This document shows, in pieces, positions 16,306-46,880 of a stretch of 64,000 nucleotides of DNA; position 1 is the first letter of the stretch; every line of letters begins with the position of its first letter. The position numbers were made by a program, and so were the translations under genes. The DNA is from Paenarthrobacter sp. A20 (GTDB taxonomy: Bacteria; Actinomycetota; Actinomycetes; Actinomycetales; Micrococcaceae), in contig NZ_JALJWH010000001.1 of assembly GCF_024168825.1 (NCBI RefSeq), positions 2,046,001 through 2,110,000 of the forward strand, read 5' to 3'. The notes beneath the pieces are model-generated. The model saw only the letters and a list, made by a program, of their open reading frames with translations. It was not told the DNA's origin and ran no database searches.

Positions 16306-16760
16306 AATTGCCTCCCGGCGTTGAGTCGGACCAGGTGCGATTCCAGGAGCAAATCCTTGGCGGGCCCATGGACATCCCACGTAAAGCTGAACGAATCCGG
16401 GCCCTCAAGGACGTAGTTGACGCGGTAATCGTCGGGATCGCACCAATGCTTGTCCTGGTTGCCCTGCTCAGAGAAGCTCATGATGTGGAAGGGCCTGCCG
16501 TCAGGAAAGAACACGTCCATCGAATCCGTGGCGGCGCCTGGTGTGAGGACATACTCGCGGAAAGCCGGGCCGGAATGGGTAGGCCAGTGCATGGTGCCGT
16601 CTTCGCGGTAGTCCAGGCCGCCGTCGGGGTTCAGTGCATAACGCACGACGCCGGTAAAAGTACCGCGGGTGCCGGAGGCCCGGTCCAGGAGTGTCCGCTC
16701 CACAGTCCAGCTGCCGGCCAAGTAGGCCTGCAAGTCCTGGATGGGTTCCTGGTGGTTCAA
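16302..16760 (-). CDS. DUF6314 family protein
   Basis: 152 residues matching the DUF6314 pattern: LAGSWTVERTLLDR, FTGVVRYAL, YREDGTM, REYVLTP and the Trp-containing C-terminal half (FSFTWDVHGPAKDLLLES). These are small beta-barrel, probably ligand-binding proteins of unknown function. The start is uncertain: the first codon is TTG at 16760, one base from the 3' end of the tRNA-Arg gene, leaving no room for a ribosome site. A second TTG nine codons later (LQAYLAG) is possible. Transcription probably comes through the tRNA. It is coupled to the downstream NUDIX gene by a 4-bp overlap. Confidence 0.8.
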   Translation of the reverse strand: MNHQEPIQDLQAYLAGSWTVERTLLDRASGTRGTFTGVVRYALNPDGGLDYREDGTMHWPTHSGPAFREYVLTPGAATDSMDVFFPDGRPFHIMSFSEQGNQDKHWCDPDDYRVNYVLEGPDSFSFTWDVHGPAKDLLLESHLVRLNAGRQL

Positions 16761-16761
16761 G

Positions 16762-16834
16762 TGCCCTCGATTGGAATCGAACCAACGACACCGGCTTTAG
16801 GAGAGCCGTGCTCTATCCACTGAGCTACGAGGGC
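16762..16834 (-). tRNA. tRNA-Arg (anticodon CCU)
   Basis: A 73-nt cloverleaf on the minus strand. The 7-bp acceptor stem pairs GCCCTCG with CGAGGGC and is followed by discriminator A. The D arm is GCTC-AGTGGATA-GAGC, the anticodon stem CGGCT/AGCCG holds the loop CTCCTAA, and the T arm is GTTGG-TTCGATT-CCAAT. The anticodon CCU reads AGG. No 3' CCA is encoded. No integrase or duplicated tRNA end lies nearby. Confidence 0.96.
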
Positions 16835-16929
16835 CTGTGTGTCCATGGCTCTGAATCCCACTGCTGGAGCTCAAGGGCCCGGACACGACTACAAGCATAC
16901 AAGCTGCCGGGGCGCTGCCCGAACACCGC

Positions 16930-16942
16930 TAGGCTGGCGACC
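16930..16942 (+). promoter_or_regulatory. leaderless -10 element for DUF998 gene 1
   Basis: TAGGCT (16930-16935) is followed by 7 nt and the ATG at 16943. No ribosome-binding sequence precedes this ATG. Confidence 0.5.
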
Positions 16943-17728
16943 ATGAAAGGGCACTCGACTGCAGCAGCACCGGCCGGATCGTTCCTCCCCAACCTCCGCA
17001 GCGTCAGGGCGAACATCGGCGGCTGGGCGCAGCTGAGCGTCGTCCAGTACTTTGTGGCCGAAGCCGCCGTGATCCAGGCCTGGGCAGGTCCGGAGCCCTA
17101 CAGCAGGGCCACTGGCTACATCAGCGACCTGGGAGCCATCTCTTGTGGCGTGTACGAGGACAGGGCCGTCTGCTCGCCCTTGCACTTGCTGATGAACGCC
17201 TCCTTCGTGGTCCAAGGACTGGGCCTGATCCTGGGTGCGCTCTTCCTGACCGCCGGGCTCCTGTGCGTAGCAGCGCGACCCGGTGTTGCTGCCCGGCGTT
17301 TCCGGTCCGTTGCAGCCGATTCCGCTCCAGCCCGCGTGCTGACTGTGCCGTGGATCCTGGCTGTCGCGATCCGGATCCTCACCGGAGTTGCCGGCGTAGG
17401 AACCGTCCTTGTTGGGTTGGTGCCTGAAGACCTCGACTCGCCATGGCATTTCGCAGGTGCCCTGATGTTCTTCATCGGCGGTGGATTCGCCCTGCTGCTG
17501 TTGGGCGTCCTGTGGTTCCGGCAGACTCCGGTCAGCTGGTTCCTTGCCCTGTGCGGCCTGGTTTGTATCGTTGCGCTCATCATTGGTGGGGTCACCGGGA
17601 TGGAAGTTGCCTTGCCCGGCCTTGTGGAGCGGCTGATGGGGTACCCGGTGACTATCGGGTTGGCAGCAGCCGGGCTGGTGATCGCCCAGCGGGTGCACGC
17701 GGAACGGAAGGCAATACGGGTGGGCTGA
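16943..17728 (+). CDS. DUF998 membrane protein (copy 1)
   Basis: 261 residues with about six transmembrane helices and the DUF998 pattern: VQYFVAEAAVIQAWAGP, YISDLGAISCGVY, SPLHLLMNASFVVQG and the middle LVGLVPED motif. DUF998 proteins are distant relatives of cytochrome-b561/frag1-like membrane proteins; their function is unknown. The ATG at 16943 was chosen over an upstream frame running through the tRNA because the protein family begins here and a leaderless -10 element is placed correctly. A second copy follows 70 bp downstream. Confidence 0.82.
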   Translation: MKGHSTAAAPAGSFLPNLRSVRANIGGWAQLSVVQYFVAEAAVIQAWAGPEPYSRATGYISDLGAISCGVYEDRAVCSPLHLLMNASFVVQGLGLILGALFLTAGLLCVAARPGVAARRFRSVAADSAPARVLTVPWILAVAIRILTGVAGVGTVLVGLVPEDLDSPWHFAGALMFFIGGGFALLLLGVLWFRQTPVSWFLALCGLVCIVALIIGGVTGMEVALPGLVERLMGYPVTIGLAAAGLVIAQRVHAERKAIRVG

Positions 17729-17786
17729 GGGCGGGCCCTGATGCACGCAGAAGCGAACAACTGGTGCGCCGGACCTTGGCGGGGTC

Positions 17787-17798
17787 TATTCTGGCGCT
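17787..17798 (+). promoter_or_regulatory. leaderless -10 element for DUF998 gene 2
   Basis: TATTCT (17787-17792) is followed by 6 nt and the ATG at 17799. Confidence 0.55.
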
Positions 17799-18626
17799 AT
17801 GACGACGGCGGCCGGTCCGCGCGGCAGTGACCGCGGGCTTCTGCCCGACCTCGCCGGGAGACGCGAGCTGGTTGGGGGATGGGCAGCGATCACGCCCATC
17901 CACTACTTCATAGTGGAAGCCGTGGCGATAGCTGCGTGGCTGGGCAACCCGGGCTATGAACGGCGGGCACACGTCATCAGCGATCTCGGTGCGGCCCACT
18001 GCGGACCTTTCAACGGGTATGAAGTCTGTTCCCCGCTCAATTGGTTGATGAATGTCTCGTTCGTGCTTCAGGGCGCAGCCATGATTCTGGGCGCCGTGTT
18101 GGTCAATACGGCCGTGTTGTCCATCGCGGCCGAGCCGGGCGCGCGGGTCATCACTCCCCGGATGGCCTCGGAGTCCCGCAGGGCAGCGGAGTCCATTCCC
18201 TGGCTCGCGGCCGGGGTTGTGCGGGCGCTGATCCTCGTGGCGGGCATAGGCCAGGCAATGGTTGGGCTTGTTCCCGAAGACACGGACCTGGCGTTGCACC
18301 TGGTCGGCGCGGGCATGTACTTCATTGCCGGGCCACTGTCCTTGGCGATCCTGGGCGTCGTGTGGAGGAGGCATACGCAGATGTCCTGGTTTGTCCTCGT
18401 GTGCGGTGCGGTGTCCCTGGGAACCACCATCTACATCCTTGCAGTGGGGCTGCGCGTGGAGGAACCGGGTGCGATCGAACGGACCATGGCCTATCCGATC
18501 ATCATGGGGTTATCCATGGTGGGCCTGGTAGTGGCACGACGGGTGACGAAGCAAAGGAAAGCTGTCAGGGCTGTGGTGCGTTCTTCCGTCCCAGGAACAC
18601 CGCAGCCACGCCGCACAGGAGGCTGA
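17799..18626 (+). CDS. DUF998 membrane protein (copy 2)
   Basis: 275 residues, clearly paralogous to the preceding gene: both share GGWA, a (V/I)HYF or VQYF motif, ISDLGA, VCSPL, LMN.SFV.QG, VGLVPED and a C-terminal ERxMxYPxxxGL...VARRV stretch. About six transmembrane helices. The last ~20 residues (basic, Pro/Gly-rich) run 62 bp into the end of the convergent downstream gene. It has its own leaderless promoter, so the pair are separate transcription units rather than an operon. Confidence 0.82.
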   Translation: MTTAAGPRGSDRGLLPDLAGRRELVGGWAAITPIHYFIVEAVAIAAWLGNPGYERRAHVISDLGAAHCGPFNGYEVCSPLNWLMNVSFVLQGAAMILGAVLVNTAVLSIAAEPGARVITPRMASESRRAAESIPWLAAGVVRALILVAGIGQAMVGLVPEDTDLALHLVGAGMYFIAGPLSLAILGVVWRRHTQMSWFVLVCGAVSLGTTIYILAVGLRVEEPGAIERTMAYPIIMGLSMVGLVVARRVTKQRKAVRAVVRSSVPGTPQPRRTGG

Positions 18627-20212: not shown

Positions 20213-21502
20213 TTGAACAGCAAGAGCAAGCTGTGGCCCACCGCCGTCGGCGTCACCGCCGTCTCGGTTCTGGCCATCGGCCTCGTGGCCGTACCGGCAG
20301 CCAACGCAGCACCCACTGACGTCATTTCGGTCGGCAGTGGACAGATCATTGATGGCTCAGTCCTGGCCATCCCGAACTTCGCCGGCCTCGCAGCCAACGG
20401 CGCAGCCAAGGCCGAACAGATCGGCACGCCGCCGTCCGGCCCGGCCATCATCGAAAACACCACCCCGCTGGATCTCAGCGCGGTCTTCGGCGTAGTCAAC
20501 GTCGGTGCGGGCAACATCCCGCTCCTGCAGGACAACGGCATCATCCAGGTTGGTGCGGTCAGCCAGTACGGCAAGGCCGTCAACGACGGTTCCTCCGAAG
20601 CATTCTCGGGCACTGTCTCCGGCGCCCCGGGTCTGGTAACCCTGCCCGGCGGCCTTCCGACCTCCGGCGACCCGGCCATTCCGGCAGCCCGTATCTCGGC
20701 CGGCACCGCAGACATCCTTGGTGGCACCGACCTGGTCAACCTCCAGCTCGACATCACCACCCTCGCGGCAGCAGCCAAGAAGGACCAGGGTGCAGCACCC
20801 CAGGGCGCCTACGCCCTTGCCGGTGTTTCGGCTGAGGTCGGCGGCACAGTGGTGGGAGGCGTTGCAGGCACCGTCAGCACCGCGATCAACACAGCCAACC
20901 TCGTCCTGACCCCGCTCGGCGTGACGGTTGCCAACCCGGTGGCCGGCGGCACCATCGCCATCACCGAAGCTGACCTCCTGGCCGCGGCAGGCGTTGCGGA
21001 CCTGAATTCCCTGGCGCCTGGAACGGATTTGGTTTCCTTCCTGCCCCAGGCCGTCGCCACCAAGCTGACCACCCTGGTCAGCAGCACCCTGGCAACTGCC
21101 ACTACTGCCGTGAATGGCCTTGGCCCGATCGCCCAGCTCACCGCCGGACCTGCCCTGGCAGTCCTGACCGCGGCACTTAACGGTGTTGTCGCAGGCGTGG
21201 CAACCACCATCGTCACCCCGCTTGGTTCAGCCCTGACTGCTTTGGTTTCGGCCAAGGTCAACGTCCAGGAAACCGCACCGTCGGGCGCCTTCACCCAGCG
21301 CGCCCTGCAGGTCGGTATTGCCGGGGGCGCCATTGCCACCGTCAACCTCGCCAACGCAACTGTTGGTCCCAACCTTGACGCAGCGGCGATCCCGCTGGTC
21401 AACGCCGACACCATGGCCATCAGCGGTGGCGTGGCCCTCCTGGCACTGCTCACCTGGCTGTTCGTTCGCTCGCGCCGCCGGTCTGCGGTAGCTGCTGCCT
21501 GA
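20213..21502 (+). CDS. secreted Ala/Val-rich surface protein with C-terminal membrane/Arg sorting tail (choice-of-anchor-G-like)
   Basis: 429 residues from the TTG at 20213, which has AGGGGGAAG just upstream; the longer frame to 20135 is not protein-like. A signal peptide (1-32) ends in AVPAANA|A. The body is poor in charge, rich in Ala, Val, Gly and Thr, and reads like a beta-rich fibrous or surface domain (IDGSVLAIPNFAGL, NVGAGNIPLLQDNGI). It resembles choice-of-anchor G proteins, a moderate-confidence recognition. The C-terminus is tripartite: PLVNADTM, a transmembrane helix (about 402-418) and RSRRRS. This is the layout of exosortase or sortase cargo, but there is no LPXTG-like motif. The downstream genes include an exosortase-like protein. 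Confidence 0.75.
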   Translation: MNSKSKLWPTAVGVTAVSVLAIGLVAVPAANAAPTDVISVGSGQIIDGSVLAIPNFAGLAANGAAKAEQIGTPPSGPAIIENTTPLDLSAVFGVVNVGAGNIPLLQDNGIIQVGAVSQYGKAVNDGSSEAFSGTVSGAPGLVTLPGGLPTSGDPAIPAARISAGTADILGGTDLVNLQLDITTLAAAAKKDQGAAPQGAYALAGVSAEVGGTVVGGVAGTVSTAINTANLVLTPLGVTVANPVAGGTIAITEADLLAAAGVADLNSLAPGTDLVSFLPQAVATKLTTLVSSTLATATTAVNGLGPIAQLTAGPALAVLTAALNGVVAGVATTIVTPLGSALTALVSAKVNVQETAPSGAFTQRALQVGIAGGAIATVNLANATVGPNLDAAAIPLVNADTMAISGGVALLALLTWLFVRSRRRSAVAAA

Positions 21503-21544
21503 TCGCCTTGAGCGCATCAAGCATCAGCGAAAGGAGAACTCCTT

Positions 21545-21727
21545 ATGTACGGCCATAACTGGACTGCAGGCGGCACAGCAGCCGGCGGTACCGCCCTCGC
21601 TGTCACCGGAGCCCCCACCCTTGGGTGGGTCATCCTGGTGGGTGTTGCCTTGCTGATCACCGGCTTCGTGGTCCTGCGTAACAGCAGGCTCAAGGCTGCG
21701 AAGCGGGATGCGGGCCCTAACCCGTAG
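21545..21727 (+). CDS. 60-residue protein consisting of an LAVTG sorting signal
   Basis: A tiny protein with a strong ribosome site (AAGGAG, 21531-21536) and ATG at 21545. A Gly/Ala/Thr-rich head (1-17) precedes LAVTG (18-22), a transmembrane helix (about 25-44) and a basic tail (RNSRLKAAKR). This is the three-part sorting signal of LAXTG type, which class E sortases of high-GC Gram-positives recognise, but there is no N-terminal signal peptide and no passenger domain. It sits 42 bp after the surface-protein gene and before a terminator-like hairpin. It could be a small pilin-like or membrane-spanning partner, or a decoy; function unknown. Confidence 0.75.
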   Translation: MYGHNWTAGGTAAGGTALAVTGAPTLGWVILVGVALLITGFVVLRNSRLKAAKRDAGPNP

Positions 21728-21734
21728 CACCACC

Positions 21735-21766
21735 GGCGGGACGGCTCCTGCAAGGGCCGTCCCGCC
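21735..21766 (+). terminator. hairpin after the LAVTG gene
   Basis: A perfect 11-bp stem, GGCGGGACGGC (21735-21745) with GCCGTCCCGCC (21756-21766), 10-nt loop, then a loose T-rich stretch (TTAATCTTTT). It separates the two cargo-like genes from the glycosyltransferase gene and probably gives the first two genes higher expression. Confidence 0.7.
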
Positions 21767-21821
21767 ACCCTTAATCTTTTCGAACAGGCCTCCCCGGCCA
21801 CGCCCCAAGCATGGGAAGTAA

Positions 21822-23183
21822 ATGTCGGTACTCGAATCCGCGCAGGCGCTGGCTTTTGTGCTCCTGGTGGTTTTTCTGTCGTATATCCTCGTGATCCTGG
21901 TGCCGTTCCTGCGGCGCAAACCCGATCCCGAGGGCGATCCCGGCTCTTTCTCCTGGCATGTGTTCATTCCATGCCGTGACGAGGAGGTGGTCATTGGGAA
22001 AACGCTGGAGCTGCTCCGTGCGAAGTTTCCCGAAGCCCATGTCTGGGTAGTCGATGACGACAGCGACGATGCCACGGCGGCCATTGTTGAAGCGGCTTCG
22101 GACCGCGACAGCATGATCCACCTGGTCCGACGCCGGCGGCCACTGGCCCGCACCGGCAAGGGGGACGCCCTCAACGCCGCCTACCGGACCCTGGACGGAT
22201 GGCTGCCCGCCGACGTCGACCGTTCCTCGGTGATTGTCCTGGTGGTCGACGCCGATGGTCACCTTGCGGACAACGCCTTCCGGCAGGCGGCCGGTCCCCT
22301 CGCGTTCGGCGACGCAGAGGTCGGCGCCGCGCAAACCGCCGTGTTTATGTCCAACCTGGAGGACCCCGAGCTCAAGGGTGGCCAGGGGCTCGACCGCATC
22401 AAGAAGGCCTTCGGCCGCTACCTGGTCCTGATGCAGGACATGGAATTCCGCACGACCATCGCAGCAATGCAGTCCCTCCGGCGCCACACCCTGACCGTGG
22501 GGCTGGGCGGAAACGGCCAGTTCACCCGGCTGTCCGCCCTGGACGCCATCGCCAGGACGTCGGGACAACCGTGGCACGGCGCGCTCCTTGAAGACTATGA
22601 ACTCGCCATCCACATCATGCTGGGCGGTTACAAGACCGTGTATATGCACGACACCCACGTCGCCCAAGAGGCACTTCCGGACCTCCGCCGCCTCCTGACC
22701 CAAAGAACACGCTGGTGCCATGGCGGCATGCAATGCAGCACCTATTTGAAGCGGATCTTCGAGTCGCCGTACTTCAGCAATGTTGGCGCGATCGAATCCA
22801 GCTACTTCCTGATCCAGCCGTTCATCCAGATTGTTGGCCTGGTCCTGTGGCCGACGCTGTTCGTCACCATGGTGGCCCAGGGCGCACTGACCATGGGCAG
22901 CTTCGCAGCCTGGATTTCCGCGGCCTGGTTCATCATTCCGTTGATCTTCGCCACCGGCGTGCTGCCCTTCGCCCTGTGGGGACTGGTGTACCGGCGGCAG
23001 GTGACGCCGGAAAAGAACTTCATGATGGGCGTGGTGTGGGGCCTTGGCTATTGGCTCTATATGTACCAAAACTACGTGACGGTACTGCGGGCAACGTACC
23101 GCCTCATCACGGGCCGGCAGGGCTGGGCAAAAACCCGCCGTAACCACGAGTCCGACGTCAAACTCCTAGCGAAGGAAGCCTAG
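21822..23183 (+). CDS. membrane glycosyltransferase, GT2 processive type
   Basis: 453 residues. One N-terminal membrane helix (8-30), a cytoplasmic GT-A domain and about four C-terminal helices. The processive GT2 (cellulose/hyaluronan-synthase-like) motifs are complete: DDDSDD (78-83), DADG (143-146), GGNGQ (229-233), the catalytic-base ED (257-258) and QRTRW (294-298). Such enzymes polymerise sugars from UDP- or GDP-sugars and thread them through the membrane. A GT2 of this kind is also a regular neighbour of the Firmicutes exosortase XrtG. The stop codon overlaps the GTG of the next gene by one base, so the two products are translationally coupled and likely cooperate. Confidence 0.87.
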   Translation: MSVLESAQALAFVLLVVFLSYILVILVPFLRRKPDPEGDPGSFSWHVFIPCRDEEVVIGKTLELLRAKFPEAHVWVVDDDSDDATAAIVEAASDRDSMIHLVRRRRPLARTGKGDALNAAYRTLDGWLPADVDRSSVIVLVVDADGHLADNAFRQAAGPLAFGDAEVGAAQTAVFMSNLEDPELKGGQGLDRIKKAFGRYLVLMQDMEFRTTIAAMQSLRRHTLTVGLGGNGQFTRLSALDAIARTSGQPWHGALLEDYELAIHIMLGGYKTVYMHDTHVAQEALPDLRRLLTQRTRWCHGGMQCSTYLKRIFESPYFSNVGAIESSYFLIQPFIQIVGLVLWPTLFVTMVAQGALTMGSFAAWISAAWFIIPLIFATGVLPFALWGLVYRRQVTPEKNFMMGVVWGLGYWLYMYQNYVTVLRATYRLITGRQGWAKTRRNHESDVKLLAKEA

Positions 23184-23779
23184 TGGCAATGAGCGCCGAC
23201 ATCAGCAACGTCTCCGTCCCCCGTGGACCGCGCGCCATACCCGTTCGGAAGGGCCGCGGCGGGGGCGTGATCGGGCTGGTCTTCATCGCTGCGGCCGTAG
23301 TGGCGATGCTCCAACAGGAAAGCATCCGGGCAGCGGAAGCCTGGCTCATGGCTACCGTCTTCGACGGAATCCTCGGCGGGGCGTCCTACAGTGTGGACGA
23401 CATCATCTTCCACAACGTCGGTGGCGGCCAACCCTACGCACTCATGGTCACTGGCCTTTGCTCCAGCGCGGTCCTCCTGACACCCATCGCCGCACTCGCC
23501 GGAATCCTGTTCCTCATGGGCCGCATCCCGGTTGCGCGGCTCATGCCCGCTGCCATCACGGCCCTGGTCATCGTCTCTGTCAGCAACGCCATCCGATACT
23601 TCATGATCGCGGCGGCACAGCAGAGCTGGGGCCAGCAAGGCTTCGACCTCATGCACCACTTCTTCGGCTCCTTCGTGGTGATTCTCGGCTTCGTGGCCGC
23701 CATCATCGTCCTGGTGCGGGCCGCCGTCGTCCGTAAAGACCGTGCCGCTCCGGCTCGCAGGGGCCGGCGTGCGTCGTAG
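23183..23779 (+). CDS. exosortase/archaeosortase-like membrane protein
   Basis: 198 residues with about five transmembrane helices. The core shows the pattern of the exosortase/archaeosortase superfamily: an invariant-type Cys (GLCSSAVLL, C93) at the start of a helix, N135-x-x-R138 in SNAIRYFMI, and H158/H159 in LMHHFFGSF. In that superfamily Cys, Arg and His form the transpeptidase site that cuts a C-terminal sorting signal. The order and spacing fit, but overall similarity is modest, so I call it exosortase-like. The GTG at 23183 has GAAGGAAG 5 nt upstream and overlaps the glycosyltransferase stop; an ATG at 23189 is the alternative. Likely substrate: the surface protein encoded at 20213. 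Confidence 0.75.
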   Translation: MAMSADISNVSVPRGPRAIPVRKGRGGGVIGLVFIAAAVVAMLQQESIRAAEAWLMATVFDGILGGASYSVDDIIFHNVGGGQPYALMVTGLCSSAVLLTPIAALAGILFLMGRIPVARLMPAAITALVIVSVSNAIRYFMIAAAQQSWGQQGFDLMHHFFGSFVVILGFVAAIIVLVRAAVVRKDRAAPARRGRRAS

Positions 23780-24650
23780 GTTGCCACTGGTCTTCGCGGC
23801 TGTTGCGCTCACGGCCGCCATGGCTTTGGCCGGCTGCGCGCCCGGAGATGCCGAATCGGCCACTGACGGCCAGGTAACCGGCGCTTCTTCGGAAAGCACA
23901 GCGGGCCAGTGCCACGTGATCACCACCCCGGAGGAATACGGTGCAAGCAGTGACTCGCGTCCCGCCGTTGCGTGTTCCGAGCCGCACACCACTCAGACAT
24001 TCCTGGTTTCCAGTGTCCCCGAACCGTTGGCCGGCCAGTCCGAGCGCCCGCTCCACGAGCAATTGCAGAACCTCACCACTCGTCTTTGCCCGGCAGCCGA
24101 GCTGCGCAAGTACCTTGCCGGCAACGACCGCGACGCTACGGCGGGCATGGCCGTCACCGGTTTCTATCCGAGCCGGTCCGAGTGGGCTGCCGGGAGCCGG
24201 ACTGTACGCTGCGACGTCCTGCTGACGTCGCCCGACCAGGCTCCGCGGGAAACCACCATGGACCTCAAAGACGCGCTCGCGGGGCCGGATTCGGCGCAGA
24301 TCCGCCTTTGCTATGCCCAGGAAATCAAGGACGGCGTGCTCAGCTCCGAAGGCTCGGATACCACCTGTTCCGAGCCCCACACCACCGAGGACGTCAGTGC
24401 TTGGTTCGGCCAGGACGCCTCGTTGGTCGGCCTCGCCGCGCAGCAGGAACGCTGCCTGCCGTTCGTTCTTGACTTCCTGAAAGTGGACGTCCTGCCGGCG
24501 GACGTGGAAGTCCGGCCAATTGTCAGGATCGACGGCGGTGCAAGGGCTGTCCGTTGCGGAGTGGCACCGCTGCAAGCCAGCCCGGAGCCCTGGACAGGAA
24601 CGCTTGCGCCCCTGGCCGGCACACTGAATGGGGGAGCGGCCAATGGTTGA
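23769..24650 (+). CDS. lipoprotein with duplicated Septum_form-like domain
   Basis: 293 residues from the GTG at 23769 (MRRRLPLV), which has AGGGG 5 nt upstream and gives a perfect lipoprotein signal with lipobox LAGC (C23). A GTG at 23742 would add nine residues. The mature part contains a duplicated pattern, CSEPHTTQTFLVSSV and CSEPHTTEDVSAWF, each flanked by further cysteines, as in the Septum_form family of mycobacterial and Micrococcaceae lipoproteins. It therefore sits on the outside of the membrane, disulfide-bonded. The gene overlaps the exosortase-like gene by 11 bp and the next gene by 8 bp. Confidence 0.78.
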   Translation: MRRRLPLVFAAVALTAAMALAGCAPGDAESATDGQVTGASSESTAGQCHVITTPEEYGASSDSRPAVACSEPHTTQTFLVSSVPEPLAGQSERPLHEQLQNLTTRLCPAAELRKYLAGNDRDATAGMAVTGFYPSRSEWAAGSRTVRCDVLLTSPDQAPRETTMDLKDALAGPDSAQIRLCYAQEIKDGVLSSEGSDTTCSEPHTTEDVSAWFGQDASLVGLAAQQERCLPFVLDFLKVDVLPADVEVRPIVRIDGGARAVRCGVAPLQASPEPWTGTLAPLAGTLNGGAANG

Positions 24651-26331
24651 GACCAAGCCTGGAGAACCGAAACCATCCACACCCGAAGCGGGAGAGTTCG
24701 CTCCGATGCCGGTGCGGTCCGGCAAGGGCCCCACGTCCGGCCCGGTTCGCAGGGCAGCGGGATTTCTCGCCAGGTTCTTCGGACCCGGAGAGCTGGCGCT
24801 TGGAGGAGTCCCCGTCCCGGCTGTCCTTGCCGGCGTGGTGTCCGCCGTCGCCATGATGGTGAGGCTCTTCGTTCCAGGGCCTGTAGGCATGGCGGACCAG
24901 GGAGACGGCCACGCGCTGGTCTGCTCCCTTGGCGTCAGCAATGTCCGGCCCTGGGACTACGCCGACTTCACGAGGTTCATTTACCCAAGCTGGTCCCCGC
25001 ACCACTTCGTCGGGGAGGCGTGCGGGGCTGTTGGCTCGGGTGAAGCCGTGTACTCGTCCCAACTGGCCTTCCTGTGGTTGGGCAAGGTGTTCACCCCGTT
25101 GTTTGGTTGGGGTCCCGGCCTGGATATGCGGGCCGTGGGGATTGTCTGCTGCCTCGTCTTCGGCTCGCTGATTGCCGCGCTGGTTGCTGTGCTGCCGGGA
25201 CGCACCAGTTTCCGGCTCCTGGTTGCCGCACTGGTCGCTGCAGTGATGGCTGACGGTGTCTTTGCTGATTTCTTCATTTCCCCCTACCCCGAAGCTGCAG
25301 CTTTCCTGGGGACGCTGGCATTGCTGGTGGCGTTGCTGAACTACTGGAACGGCCGTGGAAACCGCTGGTTGGCCATCCTGTGGGTGGTCGCGGCCGGTAC
25401 TTTCACTGTCGCGGCAAAGCCGGAGATGGTTTCGTGGCTGCCTGTGCTCGCGATGGCGTTGTTGTGGCTGCCGTATGTGCGTTCGCAACGTTCCGGCCGC
25501 AGGGCGCCGACGGCAAACTGGTGGCGGCAGCGCATGGTTCCGTTCGCGGCGATTCTGGCAATCGTAGCTTTCGCGGTGGCATTCCTTGCCGTTCAGCCCA
25601 AGCGCACCAGTGACGTGAACCTCTACAACGCTGTCTTCGCCGAAATCCTGCCGCACAGTCCGGTTCCTGAAGATGACCTCAAGTGGCTGGGCCTGGAACC
25701 GGGTTTCCTCGCGGCCAGCGGAACCACAGTTGCGTCGCCGCGTTCAGCTGCGTTGAACCCCAGGTTCCACGAGTTCCAGGAGCAGGCCGGGCCAGCGAAG
25801 CTCGTTGGGTTCTACCTGACGCACCCTGAACGGCTGATCGGTATTGGTGAACGGGGGATCACGGCCATGCTGGCACCCGAACTTGGCTACATTGGTTCCT
25901 ACATGGAGGGGCAGGGGCATGAACCTTTCGACAAGGACCGCCGCTTCCCAGTGATCCTGGGCCTTTTCACCGCCATGAAAGCCGTGCCTGTGGCCTTGGT
26001 GGCCATGCAGTTGCTGACTCTATTGCTGGGCTTTGCCGTTGCCTTCCGTAAGAAGGCAGCAGTGGGTCGCCTTGCGGTAATTGTCGTGGTGGGCGGATGG
26101 TTGCAGTTCTGGGTGGTCATGCTGGGATCGGGACAGCCCGAGATGTATCGCCAACTGATCCTTTCCGGGTTCCATGCTGCGCTGTGCGTGCCATTGCTGG
26201 TGGCGTTGATCAGCATCCTGGCGTCCCAACCGCAAAAGCCTGTGCTTCAGCAACCGGAACCCGCGGTGCCTGACCAAGCGACGCCGGAGGTACGCCCTGA
26301 GAAGCTACGTGACCCAGCCGTCAGCGTTTAG
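24643..26331 (+). CDS. large polytopic membrane protein, GT-C-like
   Basis: 562 residues from the ATG at 24643, with GGGGGAG about 7 nt upstream and an 8-bp overlap with the previous gene. A Pro/Glu-rich cytoplasmic N-terminus (1-50) precedes about ten membrane helices. The first outer loop contains MADQGDGHAL and YADFTRFIYPSW, and the later loop FADFFISPYPEAAAF; acidic residues after the first helix and this topology resemble GT-C polyprenyl-phosphate-sugar transferases. I do not recognise a named family. In this operon it may add sugars on the outer face or move a lipid-linked glycan. The 3' end overlaps the convergent regulator gene by 27 bp. Confidence 0.7.
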   Translation: MVETKPGEPKPSTPEAGEFAPMPVRSGKGPTSGPVRRAAGFLARFFGPGELALGGVPVPAVLAGVVSAVAMMVRLFVPGPVGMADQGDGHALVCSLGVSNVRPWDYADFTRFIYPSWSPHHFVGEACGAVGSGEAVYSSQLAFLWLGKVFTPLFGWGPGLDMRAVGIVCCLVFGSLIAALVAVLPGRTSFRLLVAALVAAVMADGVFADFFISPYPEAAAFLGTLALLVALLNYWNGRGNRWLAILWVVAAGTFTVAAKPEMVSWLPVLAMALLWLPYVRSQRSGRRAPTANWWRQRMVPFAAILAIVAFAVAFLAVQPKRTSDVNLYNAVFAEILPHSPVPEDDLKWLGLEPGFLAASGTTVASPRSAALNPRFHEFQEQAGPAKLVGFYLTHPERLIGIGERGITAMLAPELGYIGSYMEGQGHEPFDKDRRFPVILGLFTAMKAVPVALVAMQLLTLLLGFAVAFRKKAAVGRLAVIVVVGGWLQFWVVMLGSGQPEMYRQLILSGFHAALCVPLLVALISILASQPQKPVLQQPEPAVPDQATPEVRPEKLRDPAVSV

Positions 26332-26946
26332 CTGCTTGCGCAGGCTGATCACGTTGCCGAGCTTGATTCCGGCAGCGGCATAGCGCTGCCTGATCCTGTG
26401 CAGGTGGGCCTTGACGGTTTGTTCACTGATGCCCATGGCGTCCGCAACGCCGCGCACGGACAAAGCTTCGCTTCCGAGGTAGAGCTCCGCCAGCCGCTGT
26501 TCGCGCAGGGATAACTTGACCCGAACGGGGGCGGTATCGACCATGATGGCGGCCGCGTCGGGGTGCACGTACGGCTGCCCGTCAGCCGCAGCCCGGATGG
26601 CCGTCTCGGTGTGTGTTGGACCAGCGGACTTGGGCACGTATCCCAGGGCGCCGGCTGCGCGGGCTGCCCCTGCCTCCCACCCGTCCATGGCGGTGGCCAG
26701 GACCACCACCCGGAGGCCGGAGTCGATAAGCCAGTGGACCGCAGGAATCAGTTCAGCTTGGTGGTCCAAGGTCCCCAGGACGGCAACTGAAATGGAGTCC
26801 CCACCAAAATCGGGCTTGTCCAGGCGGGGTGGAATGGCGTTCAGCCCGGAGGCAACCACCAAGTCCGGAGCGTTGCAACGCAACCATGCATCCAAGGTGT
26901 CGATCATCAGCTGGTGATGATCGACAACCACCATACGGGTCACCAT
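26305..26946 (-). CDS. LuxR-type response regulator with degenerate receiver
   Basis: 213 residues from the ATG at 26946 (MVTRMVVVDHH). The C-terminus (about 150-213) is a clear LuxR/GerE HTH: LSLREQRLAELYL, VADAMGISEQTVKAHLHRIRQRY. The receiver domain is atypical: the acidic pair near the N-terminus reads V-D-H-H, and the phosphoacceptor position is Gly58 (AVLG where active receivers have VLLD). The Lys of YVPKS is kept. Phosphorylation is thus unlikely, and it may be controlled by ligand or protein contact. It is coupled to the histidine-kinase-like gene before it by a 7-bp overlap. Confidence 0.82.
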   Translation of the reverse strand: MVTRMVVVDHHQLMIDTLDAWLRCNAPDLVVASGLNAIPPRLDKPDFGGDSISVAVLGTLDHQAELIPAVHWLIDSGLRVVVLATAMDGWEAGAARAAGALGYVPKSAGPTHTETAIRAAADGQPYVHPDAAAIMVDTAPVRVKLSLREQRLAELYLGSEALSVRGVADAMGISEQTVKAHLHRIRQRYAAAGIKLGNVISLRKQLNADGWVT

Positions 26947-28085
26947 GGTTTCTGCGCCTTGGTACGGACCATGATGCTGGCACCTCCTGGATCTGTGTGG
27001 ACTCGGGGGGAACCCAACAACTCGAGCTCGCTCCACAATGCCGGAGTGCATCGATTGGGGTTCAGCTGGGTCACCCGCCATGTAATGAGCAACGTGGAGT
27101 CCATATCCGGTTCCACAAAGATGTGGATCCTTCGGGGCCGGTCAATCAACCGGTTGTCGGGCTCTCCTGCCGCTGTGGCCAGGAGCATGGTTGCCGCCAA
27201 CACAGCTGACCGCGAAGCCTGCGGCATCCGGTCCACCAGGTCCGATTGCGCCACGACCATGACGGTGGATTCCAGGTCGGCCAACGCCAAGGACTCAGTG
27301 AGCCACGTGGTGGATTGCGAAAGCACCAACTGGTTGCGTAGCTGCTTTGCCAACTCCTGGGCCTGTTCCGAGAAGTGGGGGTCGAGGGGGAGTTCACGCC
27401 CCTCGGCAACCTTGGCGAACAACGACTGGATCTGTTGGTGCGTTTCGGCCAGGCCCTCGACCCTCCCGGAATCGCGCGACACGGATTGTTCGGTCAGTGT
27501 GTTCAGGGCCTCCAGGGTCCTCCGCTCCATGGCGCCGTGCAGGTGGCTGTGGAGGATAAAGACAGACAGCCCGCCCAGGAGGCCGGGGAGGAGGGTGATG
27601 AAGAAGATGAGCAGCCCTTCCCCGGAGCCGAACCGCGGGGTGGTGGCGTAATAGGCGCCGCTCAGGACCGAGTTGGCGGCTACAAGGACCAGGAAGCCCA
27701 GCAGGTCCCAGCGCATGGCGACAAGGAAGACCAACGCAGTCCCAAGGAGAACGTTCAACGCCAGGGACAGGTAACCCGATGTGAGCGTGACGAATTGGGC
27801 GGTCATGGTTCCGGAAGCAATGGACGACGCCAGCCAGATGAGGCGCACGTAGGGCAAATGGCGGCGAGGTGTCTTCGGGGCCGAAGCCATGCTGGCCACG
27901 GCAAGCCCCAAAAGGTCGAACGCCAATGCGCCAAGCTTCAAACGGTCAAGGCTGCTTCCATCGAGGGAGGCGGCGTTCAGGATGCAGGAAATGATCCAAA
28001 TGGTCACGCTGGTGATCACTACGACGGTCCGGGAAACGAACAGCGGGCCGTCCTTGGAAGCTGTGTTCAGGTGCGCCAGGCTCAT
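26940..28085 (-). CDS. histidine-kinase-like membrane protein lacking catalytic motifs
   Basis: 381 residues: about six transmembrane helices (20-185), then a cytoplasmic part laid out like a NarL-partner kinase. However, where HisKA_3 would carry a phosphorylatable His (LHD-type), it reads ERRTLEALNTLTEQ, and no N-box (E-x-x-x-N) or D-x-G-x-G motif is visible; only the terminal GGASIMVRT resembles the last ATPase strand. It looks like a pseudokinase or signalling scaffold. It overlaps the upstream kinase gene by 4 bp (ATGA) and the downstream regulator by 7 bp, so all three minus-strand genes form one operon. Confidence 0.72.
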   Translation of the reverse strand: MSLAHLNTASKDGPLFVSRTVVVITSVTIWIISCILNAASLDGSSLDRLKLGALAFDLLGLAVASMASAPKTPRRHLPYVRLIWLASSIASGTMTAQFVTLTSGYLSLALNVLLGTALVFLVAMRWDLLGFLVLVAANSVLSGAYYATTPRFGSGEGLLIFFITLLPGLLGGLSVFILHSHLHGAMERRTLEALNTLTEQSVSRDSGRVEGLAETHQQIQSLFAKVAEGRELPLDPHFSEQAQELAKQLRNQLVLSQSTTWLTESLALADLESTVMVVAQSDLVDRMPQASRSAVLAATMLLATAAGEPDNRLIDRPRRIHIFVEPDMDSTLLITWRVTQLNPNRCTPALWSELELLGSPRVHTDPGGASIMVRTKAQKPW

Positions 28086-29308
28086 GGCGCGTCCGCTTCG
28101 AGGACAATGGTGGTCCCACGGCCGGGGGCTGACATGACCTGGGCCCGGCCACCGACCCCGCCCATGCGGTTCACCACGGAATTCTTCACCCCGAAGCGTT
28201 CCGCGGGGATGGCATCGGGGTCGAACCCTACCCCGGAGTCGCTGATCAACACCGACACCAGTGAACCGGAGCGCGATACCAGCACGTCAACACGGTCGGT
28301 TCCGGCATGGCGGGCGGCATTGACCATGCATTCCTCGGCGGCATCGGCAATCGCCAACTGAAGCGGCACCGGCAATGTTCCCCCTTCGCCGAAGACGTCC
28401 ACGGCGAATCCATCACGGCTGTGGTGGCGGGCGCGGTCCGTCAGCAGCAGGGCAAGTTCGTTGCAGGGTTCGACGCCGGCCACCGCACCTTGGGCGCCGA
28501 CAGGACCGTCCAGGTGCCTCATCGCATCCCGTAGGTGGGCTTCGGCGGCCGAGGTCCGCGGATCCAGCCCACCGGCGTCGGGTGTTCCAGTGGTGAGCAT
28601 TTCCCGCAACTCGTCCGGGGCCGCTCCTGCACCGCCCCTGGCCAAGAGCGTCAGTGAGCGCAGGACGGTGTCATGCAGGACCCTGGCCTCGGCTGCGGTG
28701 GCGTCGATTTTGGCGCAGGCTACAGCCTGGGCAGCGGCCGATTCCGCCCTGACGGCTTGATCGCGCCAATAGGCCGCAAGGGCTTTGGGTGCTGAATGGC
28801 CCACCACGAACATGACGTACCAGGCCCCCGTGACCATCAGCATGGTGGTAGGCCCCAGGTTATGAACCATGGACGACATGAGGGTGTGTCCCAAGACCAG
28901 AACTGCCAGAATTCCCGTAAAGACCGCGGATTTCCATGAATCACGCAGGGACAGGACCAGGGGTGAACTTGCCGCGAGGACCAGGCTGTGCGCCAGGAGT
29001 AATGAGTCTGAATCCTGGCGGTAGGTGACACCGGCAAGGAGTTCGGAAAGGGTGATCATTGCCAGGACGATCACCAGCCTGAGCGGCCAGGCGTCGGTCC
29101 ACCACATCGCGGTAAGGCAAGCAAAAACCAGGACCATCAGCACGGCGGCAACCACACGGTGCCATCCCGGCCCGCCCATGATTGGCGCCAAGTACAGCCA
29201 CGAAGCCGCGATAAAGACGAAGCTGACCACGGCACCGCTGCGGACCAGCACGTCCGAACCATACTGCACCGGCCGCTCTGTTGCCGGCCGGTTAATCCAT
29301 GCCCCCAT
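28082..29308 (-). CDS. sensor histidine kinase (NarL-partner type)
   Basis: 408 residues from the ATG at 29308, which has a strong GGGGGAG 6 nt upstream (a GTG at 29335 is weaker). About six transmembrane helices occupy residues 25-185. The cytoplasmic part has the HisKA_3 phosphoacceptor in ARVLHDTVLRSL, an N-box (EECMVNAARHA), and G-boxes SDSGVGFDPD and GRGTTIVLE. It is a complete kinase and the probable partner of the canonical LuxR-type regulator encoded divergently from it. First gene of a three-gene operon with the pseudokinase and degenerate regulator. Confidence 0.86.
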   Translation of the reverse strand: MGAWINRPATERPVQYGSDVLVRSGAVVSFVFIAASWLYLAPIMGGPGWHRVVAAVLMVLVFACLTAMWWTDAWPLRLVIVLAMITLSELLAGVTYRQDSDSLLLAHSLVLAASSPLVLSLRDSWKSAVFTGILAVLVLGHTLMSSMVHNLGPTTMLMVTGAWYVMFVVGHSAPKALAAYWRDQAVRAESAAAQAVACAKIDATAAEARVLHDTVLRSLTLLARGGAGAAPDELREMLTTGTPDAGGLDPRTSAAEAHLRDAMRHLDGPVGAQGAVAGVEPCNELALLLTDRARHHSRDGFAVDVFGEGGTLPVPLQLAIADAAEECMVNAARHAGTDRVDVLVSRSGSLVSVLISDSGVGFDPDAIPAERFGVKNSVVNRMGGVGGRAQVMSAPGRGTTIVLEADAP

Positions 29309-29330
29309 GAATGTCTCCCCCGAAACCCGT

Positions 29331-29348
29331 GTCACCTAAAATGGTGAC
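29331..29348. promoter_or_regulatory. palindrome between divergent kinase and regulator genes
   Basis: GTCACC-TAAAAT-GGTGAC is a perfect 6-bp inverted repeat with a TAAAAT centre. It lies in the short divergent promoter region and is a candidate operator; the centre could itself act as a -10 element. Confidence 0.5.
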
Positions 29349-29382
29349 GACATTTCCAAATCATATGGGGGGGAGGGGCGCG

Positions 29383-30051
29383 TTGTTGCGATACCCGGTG
29401 TCCCGACCCGCCATTGAAGTCGACATCGTGGAAGACCACGCCGTCCTTCTCGAAGGGTTGGCTCAATGGCTCCAGGCCAATGCCCCCGGGATTCGGGTGG
29501 TGGGCCGGTACGGCTCGTGGGCCGAAGCGGCCGCGAACCTGCGGGGGTTGTCCGACGTCGTGGTCCTGGACGTACTGCTCGGCGACCAAGTGCCGCTTCG
29601 CGCCAAAATCCAGGCAATCGTCTCCACCGGACCACAGGTGGTGGTCTGCAGTTCAGTGGTGGACCCCGCCGTGATGCGCCAGGCCATCGCTGCAGGCGCA
29701 CTGGCCTACATCCCCAAGACGGCGCCCGCCGGCGTGGTGGAAACCGCGCTCCGCCAGGCGGCACAGGGAATCTCATATATTACGGAGGAAGTCGCAGCTG
29801 CCCTGCAAGCCGAGCAGGCCGGGCCTCAACTATCGGCGCGGGAGCATCAAGTGGTTTCCGTGTATCTGGGCGGCGTTGCCGGCACCCTTGCAGAGACCGC
29901 GCATGTCCTCGGAATTTCCATCGATGGGGTGAAGAAGCACCTGGCGGCGGTGCGGCGAAAATTCCAGGACGGTTCCGAACCGTTGACCCGGCTGGCACTC
30001 AGGGAGCGATTGGTCTCGGACGGCTGGCTGCTGGAGGACCCAAAACAGTGA
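29383..30051 (+). CDS. LuxR-type response regulator
   Basis: 222 residues from the TTG at 29383, chosen because GGGAGGGG ends 5-6 nt upstream; an ATG at 29365 (MGGRG) is possible but has no ribosome site. The receiver is canonical: E17-D18, phosphoacceptor D63 in VVVLDVLL, and K112 in YIPKTAP. The C-terminal LuxR HTH is LSAREHQVVSVYL, AHVLGISIDGVKKHLAAVRRKF. The ending SDGWLLEDPKQ is like NADGWVT of the degenerate regulator, so the two are paralogues. It pairs with the divergent sensor kinase; nearby targets could be the surface-protein operon, which is inference. Confidence 0.85.
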   Translation: MLRYPVSRPAIEVDIVEDHAVLLEGLAQWLQANAPGIRVVGRYGSWAEAAANLRGLSDVVVLDVLLGDQVPLRAKIQAIVSTGPQVVVCSSVVDPAVMRQAIAAGALAYIPKTAPAGVVETALRQAAQGISYITEEVAAALQAEQAGPQLSAREHQVVSVYLGGVAGTLAETAHVLGISIDGVKKHLAAVRRKFQDGSEPLTRLALRERLVSDGWLLEDPKQ

Positions 30052-32808: not shown

Positions 32809-33120
32809 GTGTGGGTCCGCGACTCTGATCAGCTGAAGCAGCGCATTTTCTGGACAACGGTGACGGTCCTGGCCGCCCGGCCACCCGCGGAGAACCCGCC
32901 GCCTGCTTCGGCAGTTCCAGCACCTCCGGCGGCGGTGACTCCGGCAGGAGCAGTGGTCCCGGCGTCGGGCACTGAACTTACCTGCGCTGAACTTGCGGCG
33001 ACCGGCCTGGAGTCCGAAAGGCTGCACACCACTCTGTGGGCTGCCGCGGGCCTGCTGGCCGCGGGCGCCGCGCTGATGGTCTTCAACAGCCTCCGGCGCC
33101 GCCGAGGCAGTCCGGCGTGA
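32809..33120 (+). CDS. small protein with LAATG sorting signal, N-terminus doubtful
   Basis: 103 residues if started at GTG 32809. A Pro/Ala-rich stretch (25-55) leads to TCAELAATG (LAATG, 62-66), a transmembrane helix (about 73-93) and RRRR, i.e. an LAXTG sorting signal of the class E sortase type. No convincing signal peptide precedes it in frame. A TAGACT element at 32726-32731 and a TTG at 32741 start a short frame, in another phase, that reads like a signal peptide (hydrophobic VLAVSALLCGSATL) and then hits a stop at about 32833. The gene may be frameshifted or the start may be elsewhere. Expression is therefore uncertain. Confidence 0.5.
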   Translation: MWVRDSDQLKQRIFWTTVTVLAARPPAENPPPASAVPAPPAAVTPAGAVVPASGTELTCAELAATGLESERLHTTLWAAAGLLAAGAALMVFNSLRRRRGSPA

Positions 33121-45374: not shown

Positions 45375-46817
45375 ATGACCAATTCATCCTCACTGGAAAC
45401 CCAAACCGACCAGACCGGCGTCCCCCGCACGAGCGGAGGGAAGGACGCCAAGCCGGCCAATCCCAAGAAGTTCCTCAGGAAGGTGGCGCTGTTCTCCACC
45501 TTCGGCGGGCTGCTGTTCGGCTACGACACCGGCGTCATCAATGGCGCCCTGCCGTTCATGCAAAAAGACCTTGGACTCACACCGCTGACCGAAGGCCTTG
45601 TGACGTCCACCCTGCTGTTTGGTGCCGCGTTCGGTGCAATCAGCGCAGGGCGGTTGTCGGACCGTTTCGGCCGGCGCAAAACCATCATGGGCCTGGCCCT
45701 GATCTTCGCCTTCGCCACTGTGGCGTGCTCTTTGGCTCCGACCACCGAGCTGCTGGTGCTTGCGCGCACTGTCCTGGGGCTGGCCGTTGGCGGTGCCTCC
45801 GTGATTGTTCCCGTCTACCTTGCGGAGATGTCGCCTGCCGCCCAGCGGGGCAGGATCGTCACGCAGAACGAGCTCATGATTGTGACGGGCCAGTTCCTGG
45901 CGTTCACCTTCAACGCGGTCCTGGGCAACCTGTTCCCGGACTCGATGCACGTGTGGCGCTGGATGCTGGTGATTGCCACCCTGCCGGCCGTTATTCTGTG
46001 GTTCGGCATGCTGGTACTGCCGGAGAGCCCGCGCTGGCTGGCGTCTTCCGGCCGTTTCGGCGAGGTGATGGACGTGCTCCGCCGGACGCGCGCTGCCGGC
46101 GAAGTCTCCAAGGAGTTCGACGACGTCCGCCGCGCCGCCCGCGAGGATTACCAGTCGAAGATGGGGACGTTCAAAGACCTCGCTGTTCCCTGGGTCCGCA
46201 GAATTTTTGTGGTGGGCCTGGGCATGGCCGTGATCAACCAGATCAGTGGCGTCAACGCCATCATGTACTACGGCACATCCATCCTGTCCTCGTCCGGCTT
46301 CGGCGATCAAGGCGCTCTGCTGGCCAACGTGGTCAACGGCGTGACGTCGGTGGTGGCCGTCATTGTGGGCATGTGGATGATGACGCGGCTGAACCGTAAA
46401 TCAATGCTGATCTTCGGATTGTGCGGGACGGCGGCCTCGCTGACGGCTATCTCCATCACGTCCTTTGCAGTGCCCGAAGGCATGCTCCGTGGTTACTTGG
46501 TACTCCTGTTCATGGTGACGTTCCTGGCCTCCATGCAGTCCTGTATCGGCACTGTCACGTGGCTGACCCTGGCCGAGATCTTCCCGCTGCACGTCCGCGG
46601 CGTGGGAATGGGCATCTGCGTCTTCGTATTGTGGATCATCAACTTCATGGTGGGCTTCTTCTTCCCCCAGATGGTGGCCTGGATGGGCGTCTCAGCCACG
46701 TTCCTGGTGTTCGTTGCCCTGCAGTTGGTGGCGATCGTCTGGGTGAAGCGAACCGTGCCGGAAACCAGGGGTAAGAGCCTGGAAGAGCTGGAAGCGTTCT
46801 TCAAAGCACGCGCCTAA
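45375..46817 (+). CDS. MFS sugar-porter, probable myo-inositol transporter
   Basis: 480 residues, 12 transmembrane helices, sugar porter family. Motifs: [51 protein letters not shown] and [12 protein letters not shown]. Homology and its place as the last gene of the iol operon point to an IolT-type myo-inositol:H+ symporter. It starts 25 bp after iolH. A near-perfect long hairpin follows the stop. Confidence 0.9.
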
Positions 46818-46821
46818 CCGG

Positions 46822-46880
46822 GTTTGAACACAGCTAATGCCCCTAAGAAACGTTCTTAGGGGCATTTGCTGTGTTCAAAC
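46822..46880. terminator. bidirectional terminator, 28-bp stem
   Basis: 46822-46849 pairs with 46853-46880 with one mismatch and a 3-nt loop, placed between the convergent iol operon and iolB. It is among the longest inverted repeats in this window. Confidence 0.9.

What the first reader, a model, noticed from the sequence alone, without database searches (positions are those of the whole stretch)
20213..26331. Candidate actinobacterial exosortase-like sorting and glycosylation operon
Seen: a secreted Ala/Val-rich protein with C-terminal transmembrane-plus-Arg tail (20213), an LAVTG mini-protein (21545), a processive GT2 (21822) whose stop overlaps the start of a small membrane protein with Cys93/N135xxR138/H158-159 (23183), a Septum_form-like lipoprotein (23769) and a large polytopic protein (24643). 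The last four overlap each other. Known: exosortases use Cys, Arg and His in membrane helices, and a GT2 accompanies XrtG in Firmicutes. Inference: the cluster processes, anchors and glycosylates the upstream surface protein. Such a self-contained set, with one dedicated cargo, would be unusual.
Basis: partly seen in the sequence, partly recalled or inferred. Interest (0 to 1): 0.75.

Follow-up and report, generated by a model that had tools for sequence, protein, structure and literature searches.

The report
Exosortase cassette with sortase-tagged mini-protein
A six-gene soil-bacterium cassette pairs a known exosortase and its one surface protein with sugar-polymer enzymes and a tiny, unnamed, sortase-tagged protein that also sits beside the same kind of sugar-polymer enzyme in other actinobacteria, hinting at a new way to tie glycans to the cell wall.

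Summary
In detail: six co-directional genes at 20213-26331. The exosortase reading is right but already catalogued. The 198-aa protein passes NCBIfam exosortase S (197.9 bits, cut-off 145), the upstream protein is choice-of-anchor G with PVV-CTERM, the GT2 passes 'XrtP-associated glycosyltransferase', and the last gene is WsfD. XrtS and PVV-CTERM exceed cut-off in the same 9 of 61 congeneric genomes. All six genes keep their order in 11 of 11 named loci. The new part is the one mentioned in passing, the 60-aa LAVTG mini-protein: no signal peptide, Met-Tyr start, strong purifying selection. Relatives lie in 12 of 27 exosortase loci examined, and one more locus has an in-frame mini-exosortase fusion. 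Others sit beside a GT2 in genomes without a detected exosortase: 17 of 18 unseeded short hits of a class-wide search have a Q..RW GT2 next door or one gene away. None of 12 minis tested reaches a dedicated NCBIfam family. I propose that the GT2 makes a glycan held at the wall by a sortase-anchored peptide, while XrtS processes one cargo beside it. Cleavage, anchoring and the glycan are inferred.

The parts
20213..21502 (+). Cargo: choice-of-anchor G surface protein with PVV-CTERM
   Evidence: NF033766 119.9 bits (cut-off 45), NF051874 51.2 (cut-off 27); only PVV_CTERM match in the genome
21386..21496 (+). PVV-CTERM sorting signal (residues 392-428; IPLVN, helix, RSRRR)
   Evidence: NF051874 stretch; IP[LV]VN kept in 10 of 11 named loci, L032 being frameshifted
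21545..21727 (+). Mini-protein, 60 aa, Met-Tyr start, LAVTG, one helix, basic tail, no signal peptide
   Evidence: Below cut-off of NF058583 (31.7 of 65) and NF058582 (17.6 of 27); in 11 of 11 named loci
21596..21610 (+). LAVTG motif, the presumed class E sortase site
   Evidence: Sequence; LAXTG as class E signal from passages of PMC5148588
21822..23183 (+). Membrane GT2 with Q294-R-T-R-W298 (22701-22715)
   Evidence: NF053846 627.6 bits (cut-off 520); motif; fold match to hyaluronan and cellulose synthases
23183..23779 (+). Exosortase S; C93 at 23459-23461, N135-R138 at 23585-23596, H158 at 23654-23656
   Evidence: NF033767 197.9 (145), TIGR04178 29.9 (23), PF09721 26.7 (25.7)
23769..24650 (+). 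Lipoprotein with Septum_form domain
   Evidence: PF13845 75.8 (25)
24643..26331 (+). WsfD-family polytopic hexose transferase
   Evidence: NF051875 345.6 (80)

Best explanation
This is an actinobacterial exosortase cassette joined to a wall-glycan module. (1) The cargo is exported by its signal peptide; XrtS, using C93, R138 and H158, cuts at the PLVN/PVV motif before the C-terminal helix and releases the cargo or joins it to an acceptor (family membership shown by sequence; reaction inferred). (2) The GT2 is a processive membrane synthase that polymerises and extrudes a glycan, and WsfD with the lipoprotein adds lipid-linked hexose outside (inferred from family, fold and motif). (3) The mini inserts N-out/C-in, is cut at LAVT|G by a housekeeping sortase, and its roughly 21-residue Tyr-bearing peptide becomes wall-bound. 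It is the dedicated partner of the GT2 and most likely holds or seeds the glycan at the wall (association shown; role inferred).
For: Curated models. Same 9 of 61 genomes carry XrtS and PVV-CTERM. Six genes in order in 11 of 11 named loci. Catalytic residues invariant in 13 of 13. Mini in 12 of 27 exosortase loci plus one fusion. 17 of 18 unseeded short A2 hits lie beside a Q..RW GT2 or one gene away. 16 genomes have the mini-GT2 pair with no exosortase hit genome-wide. Sortase present in 25 of 25 genomes tested. GT2 fold resembles hyaluronan and cellulose synthases.
Against: 14 of 27 exosortase loci have neither mini nor fusion although 12 of those 14 have a GT2, so the mini is not required by the exosortase-GT2 pair. 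The window mini reaches no sorting-signal cut-off and lacks a signal peptide. PF04203 does not tell the sortase class, and sortases also occur where no mini was seen, so one search does not discriminate. The XrtS motif is CSS, not the CxG of EpsH. A mannosyltransferase (PcManGT) ranks near the synthases, so a non-processive GT2 is possible.
Confidence: 0.5

Rival explanations
1. The mini is a regulatory or assembly subunit of the GT2, as small membrane proteins are for other GT2 synthases (IcaD/PgaD, recalled), and the sortase signal only sets its place or turnover.
For: Tight pairing with GT2 genes regardless of exosortase; similar size to small membrane partners (recalled).
Against: Does not explain why L[AP]x[TS]G is kept in 44 of 44 Tyr-bearing minis (the scan required it) and in 102 of 105 database homologues (not required there).
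Confidence: 0.27
2. The GT2 makes a lipid-linked or short sugar that WsfD passes to the cargo, so the cassette is a protein-glycosylation system; the mini is incidental to it.
For: WsfD is described as moving lipid-linked glucose to an S-layer glycan (passages of PMC2943079); PcManGT ranks 4th and 7th.
Against: Q..RW and synthase-like fold; mini-GT2 pairs occur without cargo or WsfD.
Confidence: 0.13
3. The mini is a second substrate of the exosortase rather than of a sortase.
For: Adjacency, one in-frame fusion to an exosortase (L161), same motif-helix-basic-tail layout.
Against: 16 genomes carry the mini-GT2 pair with no exosortase hit genome-wide; the motif is sortase-like, unlike the cargo signal.
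Confidence: 0.07
4. The mini is an ordinary small sortase substrate beside a GT2 by chance or by shared descent of one locus.
For: Several hits come from the same genus and may share the neighbourhood by descent.
Against: 17 of 18 unseeded hits come from 10 genera and several GT2 subtypes.
Confidence: 0.03

Closest known systems
Exosortase S / PVV-CTERM choice-of-anchor G (NCBIfam NF033767, NF051874, NF033766)
   Same: Cut-offs passed by the window proteins.
   Different: Nothing at the level of the models; the linked mini, lipoprotein and WsfD are outside them.
PEP-CTERM/EpsH exosortase system (PMC1569441, passages)
   Same: Conserved Cys, NxxR and HxxxG; polysaccharide genes nearby; C-terminal motif-helix-basic signal.
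   Different: That system is in bacteria with an outer membrane and EpsH has at least eight helices; here a short protein with about four hydrophobic segments, CSS instead of CxG, and one cargo.
GspA-LcpA-SrtA of Actinomyces oris (PMC6381275, passages)
   Same: A sortase-anchored carrier that bears a glycan.
   Different: GspA is Sec-translocated, about 25 kDa as monomer, and glycosylated by an LCP enzyme. Here the carrier candidate is a signal-less 60-aa protein beside the polymer synthase, and none of the six cassette proteins listed an LCP family.
LAXTG_small_WW (NF058583) and Microco_LAVTG (NF058582)
   Same: Small proteins or tails with the LAxTG signal; weak similarity.
   Different: Cut-offs not met by any of 12 minis scanned; NF058583 over cut-off in 0 of 248 genomes of the order.
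WsfD/WsfH of Paenibacillus alvei (PMC2943079, passages)
   Same: WsfD-family enzyme, there moving lipid-linked glucose to a ManNAc-containing glycan.
   Different: No S-layer or other slg genes in this cassette; sugar and acceptor unknown.

Membership tests
Exosortase/archaeosortase, XrtS | Curated model cut-offs | tested here: met
   NF033767 197.9/145, TIGR04178 29.9/23; PF09721 26.7/25.7
Exosortase/archaeosortase, XrtS | Conserved Cys, Asn-x-x-Arg and His-x-x-x-Gly | tested here: met
   C93, N135, R138, H158, G162 invariant in 13 of 13
Exosortase/archaeosortase, XrtS | Cys-x-Gly around the Cys, as in EpsH | tested here: not met
   CSS here; CxG stated in PMC1569441. The XrtS model itself is met
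Exosortase/archaeosortase, XrtS | Cleavage or transfer of the cargo | not testable with these tools
   Needs biochemistry
PVV-CTERM choice-of-anchor G cargo | Curated cut-offs and co-occurrence with XrtS | tested here: met
   same 9 of 61 genomes over cut-off
XrtP-associated glycosyltransferase (NF053846) | Cut-off 520 bits | tested here: met
   627.6
Processive GT2 synthase | Q..RW and synthase-like fold | tested here: met
   QRTRW at 294. Processivity itself not testable
Class E sortase substrate (mini) | LAxTG, helix, basic tail at the C-terminus | tested here: met
Class E sortase substrate (mini) | N-terminal signal peptide | tested here: not met
   Only one hydrophobic segment, after the motif
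Class E sortase substrate (mini) | Class E sortase in the genome | tested here: inconclusive
   Two PF04203 matches in the own genome, class not determined
Named small LAxTG families NF058583, NF058582 | Curated cut-offs | tested here: not met
   31.7 of 65 and 17.6 of 27
WsfD hexose transferase | Cut-off 80 bits | tested here: met
   345.6; sugar and acceptor not tested
Septum_form lipoprotein | Pfam gathering score 25 | tested here: met
   75.8

The most novel reading that the evidence does not exclude
The Met-Tyr LAxTG minis are peptide carriers on which Q..RW synthases start or hang their polysaccharide, plausibly through the near-invariant N-terminal Tyr, before a sortase welds peptide and glycan to peptidoglycan: a polysaccharide-anchoring route separate from LCP ligases. 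In exosortase cassettes this wall-bound glycan, or the mini itself, is the unknown acceptor to which the exosortase joins its cargo.
Probability: 0.17. Interest if true: 0.9.

Novelty: new variant of a known kind. Interest (0 to 1): 0.62.

Why it matters
Why exosortases sit beside polysaccharide genes, and what bacterial exosortases attach their substrates to, are open questions as far as the passages I read show. A compact cassette with one cargo, one polymer synthase and a sortase-tagged peptide in soil bacteria makes both testable with a few deletions. Separately, the mini-GT2 pair looks like an unnamed partnership spread over at least ten actinobacterial genera, which could bear on how such cells keep glycans on their surface.

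Tried and rejected
Literature. Eight searches listed no paper on actinobacterial XrtS, PVV-CTERM or a LAxTG mini beside a GT2: 10 of 10 listed; 25 of 33, off topic; 2 of 2; 25 of 32; 20 of 493; 2 of 2; 2 of 2; 8 of 130. Listings only, partly capped, open-licence library only. The 2012 archaeosortase/exosortase paper is not held.

Tests that did not help. Sortase PF04203 is in 25 of 25 genomes, with and without minis. The XrtS model has no PDB match at E<=0.001. Sequence searches of the PDB gave none for GT2 (E<=0.01) and WsfD (E<=1). NF058583 was tried as the mini's family and rejected. Reading the mini as an exosortase substrate was ranked low because of 16 genomes with mini and GT2 but no exosortase hit.

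Circularity and limits. Profile A1 ranked its own seeds highest; not counted. For A2 only unseeded hits are counted; two of the 17 (G362, G593) were already known from the exosortase search, and A2 had two seeds from exosortase-free loci. The 24 short frames (at most 200 aa) are all that one search listed of that size among 63 places; 6 are seeds. Of the 39 longer frames four were fetched as controls (L227-L230): two gave a small-ORF row with no GT2 in the locus, two gave no row. Short LAxTG ORFs without N-terminal Tyr in L221, L222, L224, L225, L226, L228 and L230 have no GT2 in the locus, window 32935 lies 9.75 kb from one, and L173:8410 is the cargo's own end. The mini-linked GT2 clade without exosortase was sampled through its minis, so its being wholly mini-linked is by construction. 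Control GT2s L102-L117 were not checked for Q..RW, so that motif does not discriminate.
Full report
Observation. The six genes are present at the stated coordinates, on one strand, with overlaps of 1, 11 and 8 bases between GT2/XrtS, XrtS/lipoprotein and lipoprotein/WsfD. The window lies in a genome of 5,379,468 bases; the nearest named loci are Arthrobacter and Paenarthrobacter.

What the parts are (bits with cut-off). Cargo: choice-of-anchor G 119.9 (45) and PVV-CTERM 51.2 (27). GT2: XrtP-associated glycosyltransferase 627.6 (520). 198-aa protein: exosortase S 197.9 (145), TIGR04178 29.9 (23), PF09721 26.7 (25.7). Lipoprotein: Septum_form 75.8 (25). Last gene: WsfD 345.6 (80). The mini reaches none: NF058583 31.7 (65), NF058582 17.6 (27).

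Conservation within the genus. XrtS is over cut-off in 9 of 61 genomes and PVV-CTERM over cut-off in the same 9 of 61, one PVV match each; five further genomes have only sub-cut-off PVV matches. One of the nine, G043, has a second, sub-cut-off exosortase-like match (95.3 bits, open frame 192 aa); near it I saw no GT2 hit and no mini (L168). All six genes are in order in 11 of 11 named loci L026-L036 and in L173-L175. Alignments break into two frames in the L032 cargo and the L035 and L026 WsfD. C93, N135, R138, H158 and G162 are invariant in 13 of 13 exosortases; this fits the NxxR and HxxxG of EpsH but not its CxG.

Wider survey. TIGR04178 finds exosortases in 17 of 248 genomes of the order (18 places). 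The XrtS model finds matches in 11 of 394 genomes of the class, one over cut-off, the window's own. I read 27 of these loci: 17 of the 18 from the order, own included (G222 not fetched), and the 10 non-own loci from the class. A GT2 neighbours the exosortase in 25 of 27 (one exosortase of G235 was missed by my gene caller and is placed); the two without are L100 and L101. A UDP-GlcNAc 2-epimerase passes its model in L088 and L093, and one in L164 is judged by eye. Secreted proteins with a C-terminal helix and basic tail lie near many of the exosortases. The lipoprotein-WsfD pair recurs in L092, L160 and L164 (Septum_form confirmed in all three; the WsfD model was run on L092 only).

The mini in exosortase loci. 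A scan for 30-100-aa ORFs with L[AP]x[TS]G, one helix and a basic tail finds one in 12 of the 27 loci, beside the GT2 or the exosortase, and none in 16 GT2-containing control loci without an exosortase (L102-L117). L161 has an in-frame fusion of such a mini to the exosortase, in a genome only 68% complete, so an assembly error cannot be excluded. The other 14 loci have neither: nine in genera g22 and g15, one in g23, two in g39, one each in g120 and g116. By genus, 11 of 17 have a mini or the fusion. Except in L159, whose start is unclear, every one starts Met-Tyr, which the scan did not ask for. L037, a Microbacterium draft genome outside the 27, also has mini, GT2 and an exosortase over the XrtS cut-off (176.4).

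The mini follows the GT2. Profile A2 (13 minis, two from loci without exosortase) searched over 394 genomes lists 63 places. Of the 24 with open frames of at most 200 aa, 18 were not seeds; 17 of these 18 lie within 600 bases of a Q..RW GT2, directly beside it or with only the exosortase between, and they come from 10 genera. The exception, G318 (L226), looks like the end of a longer protein. Two of the 17 were already known from the exosortase search. A loose first look lists up to 23 GT2 candidates per genome, of which at most six were scored, so a random gene would neighbour one in roughly 1% of cases or less (my estimate). In 16 genomes the pair occurs with no exosortase match genome-wide by TIGR04178 or the XrtS model. 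Over the 88 loci scanned, 44 of 44 minis with Tyr in the first four residues have a Q..RW GT2 within 635 bases, 26 with an exosortase in the locus and 18 without; those loci were fetched for exosortase, GT2 or mini hits, so this figure is descriptive. The window's own genome has a second mini-GT2 pair far from the window (L176).

The mini itself. Length 49-64 aa; 31 of 44 have no charged residue before the motif. Of 105 database homologues, 83 start MY, 12 more show an internal MY after a longer predicted start, and 102 carry the motif. Names given are mostly 'hypothetical protein', with a few LPXTG-anchor, peptidase or unrelated names. Of 12 minis scanned against NCBIfam none reaches NF058583 or NF058582; three (L088, L162, L163) just pass the general LPXTG_anchor domain.

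GT2 mechanism. The model of the GT2 (mean pLDDT 88.3) matches hyaluronan synthase, cellulose synthase and an archaeal mannosyltransferase. Q..RW is in 21 of 21 GT2s checked, 20 of them mini-linked. A FastTree of 61 GT2s, midpoint-rooted, puts mini-linked enzymes in two deep clades; the exosortase-free clade was sampled through its minis, the other mixes loci with and without. WsfD of P. alvei is described as passing lipid-linked glucose to a ManNAc-containing glycan (passages of PMC2943079), which fits the epimerases of L088 and L093 but proves nothing for the window.

Interpretation. Shown: the cassette, family memberships, conserved residues, co-occurrence, and a mini-GT2 association that does not need the exosortase. 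Inferred: XrtS cleavage, sortase anchoring, polymer synthesis, side-chain addition by WsfD, and the tether. A precedent for a sortase-anchored glycan carrier is GspA of Actinomyces oris (passages of PMC6381275). LAXTG as the class E sortase signal comes from passages of PMC5148588.

Novelty. XrtS, PVV-CTERM, the GT2 and WsfD have NCBIfam models, so that part is a new member of a known kind. The mini as a recurrent, unnamed partner of Q..RW synthases, at times inside exosortase cassettes and once fused to the exosortase, is what I take to be new; eight literature searches (some capped) listed nothing on it.

Noticed in passing
L176:5506-6827 (own genome, G000:C1 about 45505-46826, outside the window): A second GT2 (379 aa) with an adjacent Met-Tyr LAATG mini, without exosortase in the locus.
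   Followed up: yes
L161:6614-7315: In-frame fusion of a MY...LPYTG mini to an exosortase, in a 68%-complete genome.
   Followed up: partly
L090-L098: Exosortase-GT2 loci of two genera (g22, g15) without a mini; L093 has a choice-of-anchor P type protein and a WecB-type epimerase beside the GT2.
   Followed up: partly
L168 (G043:C44:151904-152299): A second, sub-cut-off exosortase-like frame in an XrtS-bearing genome, with no GT2 hit or mini nearby.
   Followed up: partly
L032:7039-8326: Cargo gene frameshifted in this draft record.
   Followed up: no
L100, L101: Exosortase-like proteins of about 550 aa in genus g39 without the GT2 or mini.
   Followed up: no
window 26305-30051: LuxR-type regulators and sensor-kinase-like membrane proteins next to the cassette; similar genes lie there in L173-L175. 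A possible regulator of it; families not searched.
   Followed up: no
window 32860-33120: 86-aa ORF with LAATG, helix and Arg tail; no N-terminal Tyr, 9.75 kb from the GT2; gene or chance not settled.
   Followed up: no
window 16691-18626: Two neighbouring ORFs for similar polytopic membrane proteins of 345 and 275 aa upstream of the cassette.
   Followed up: no
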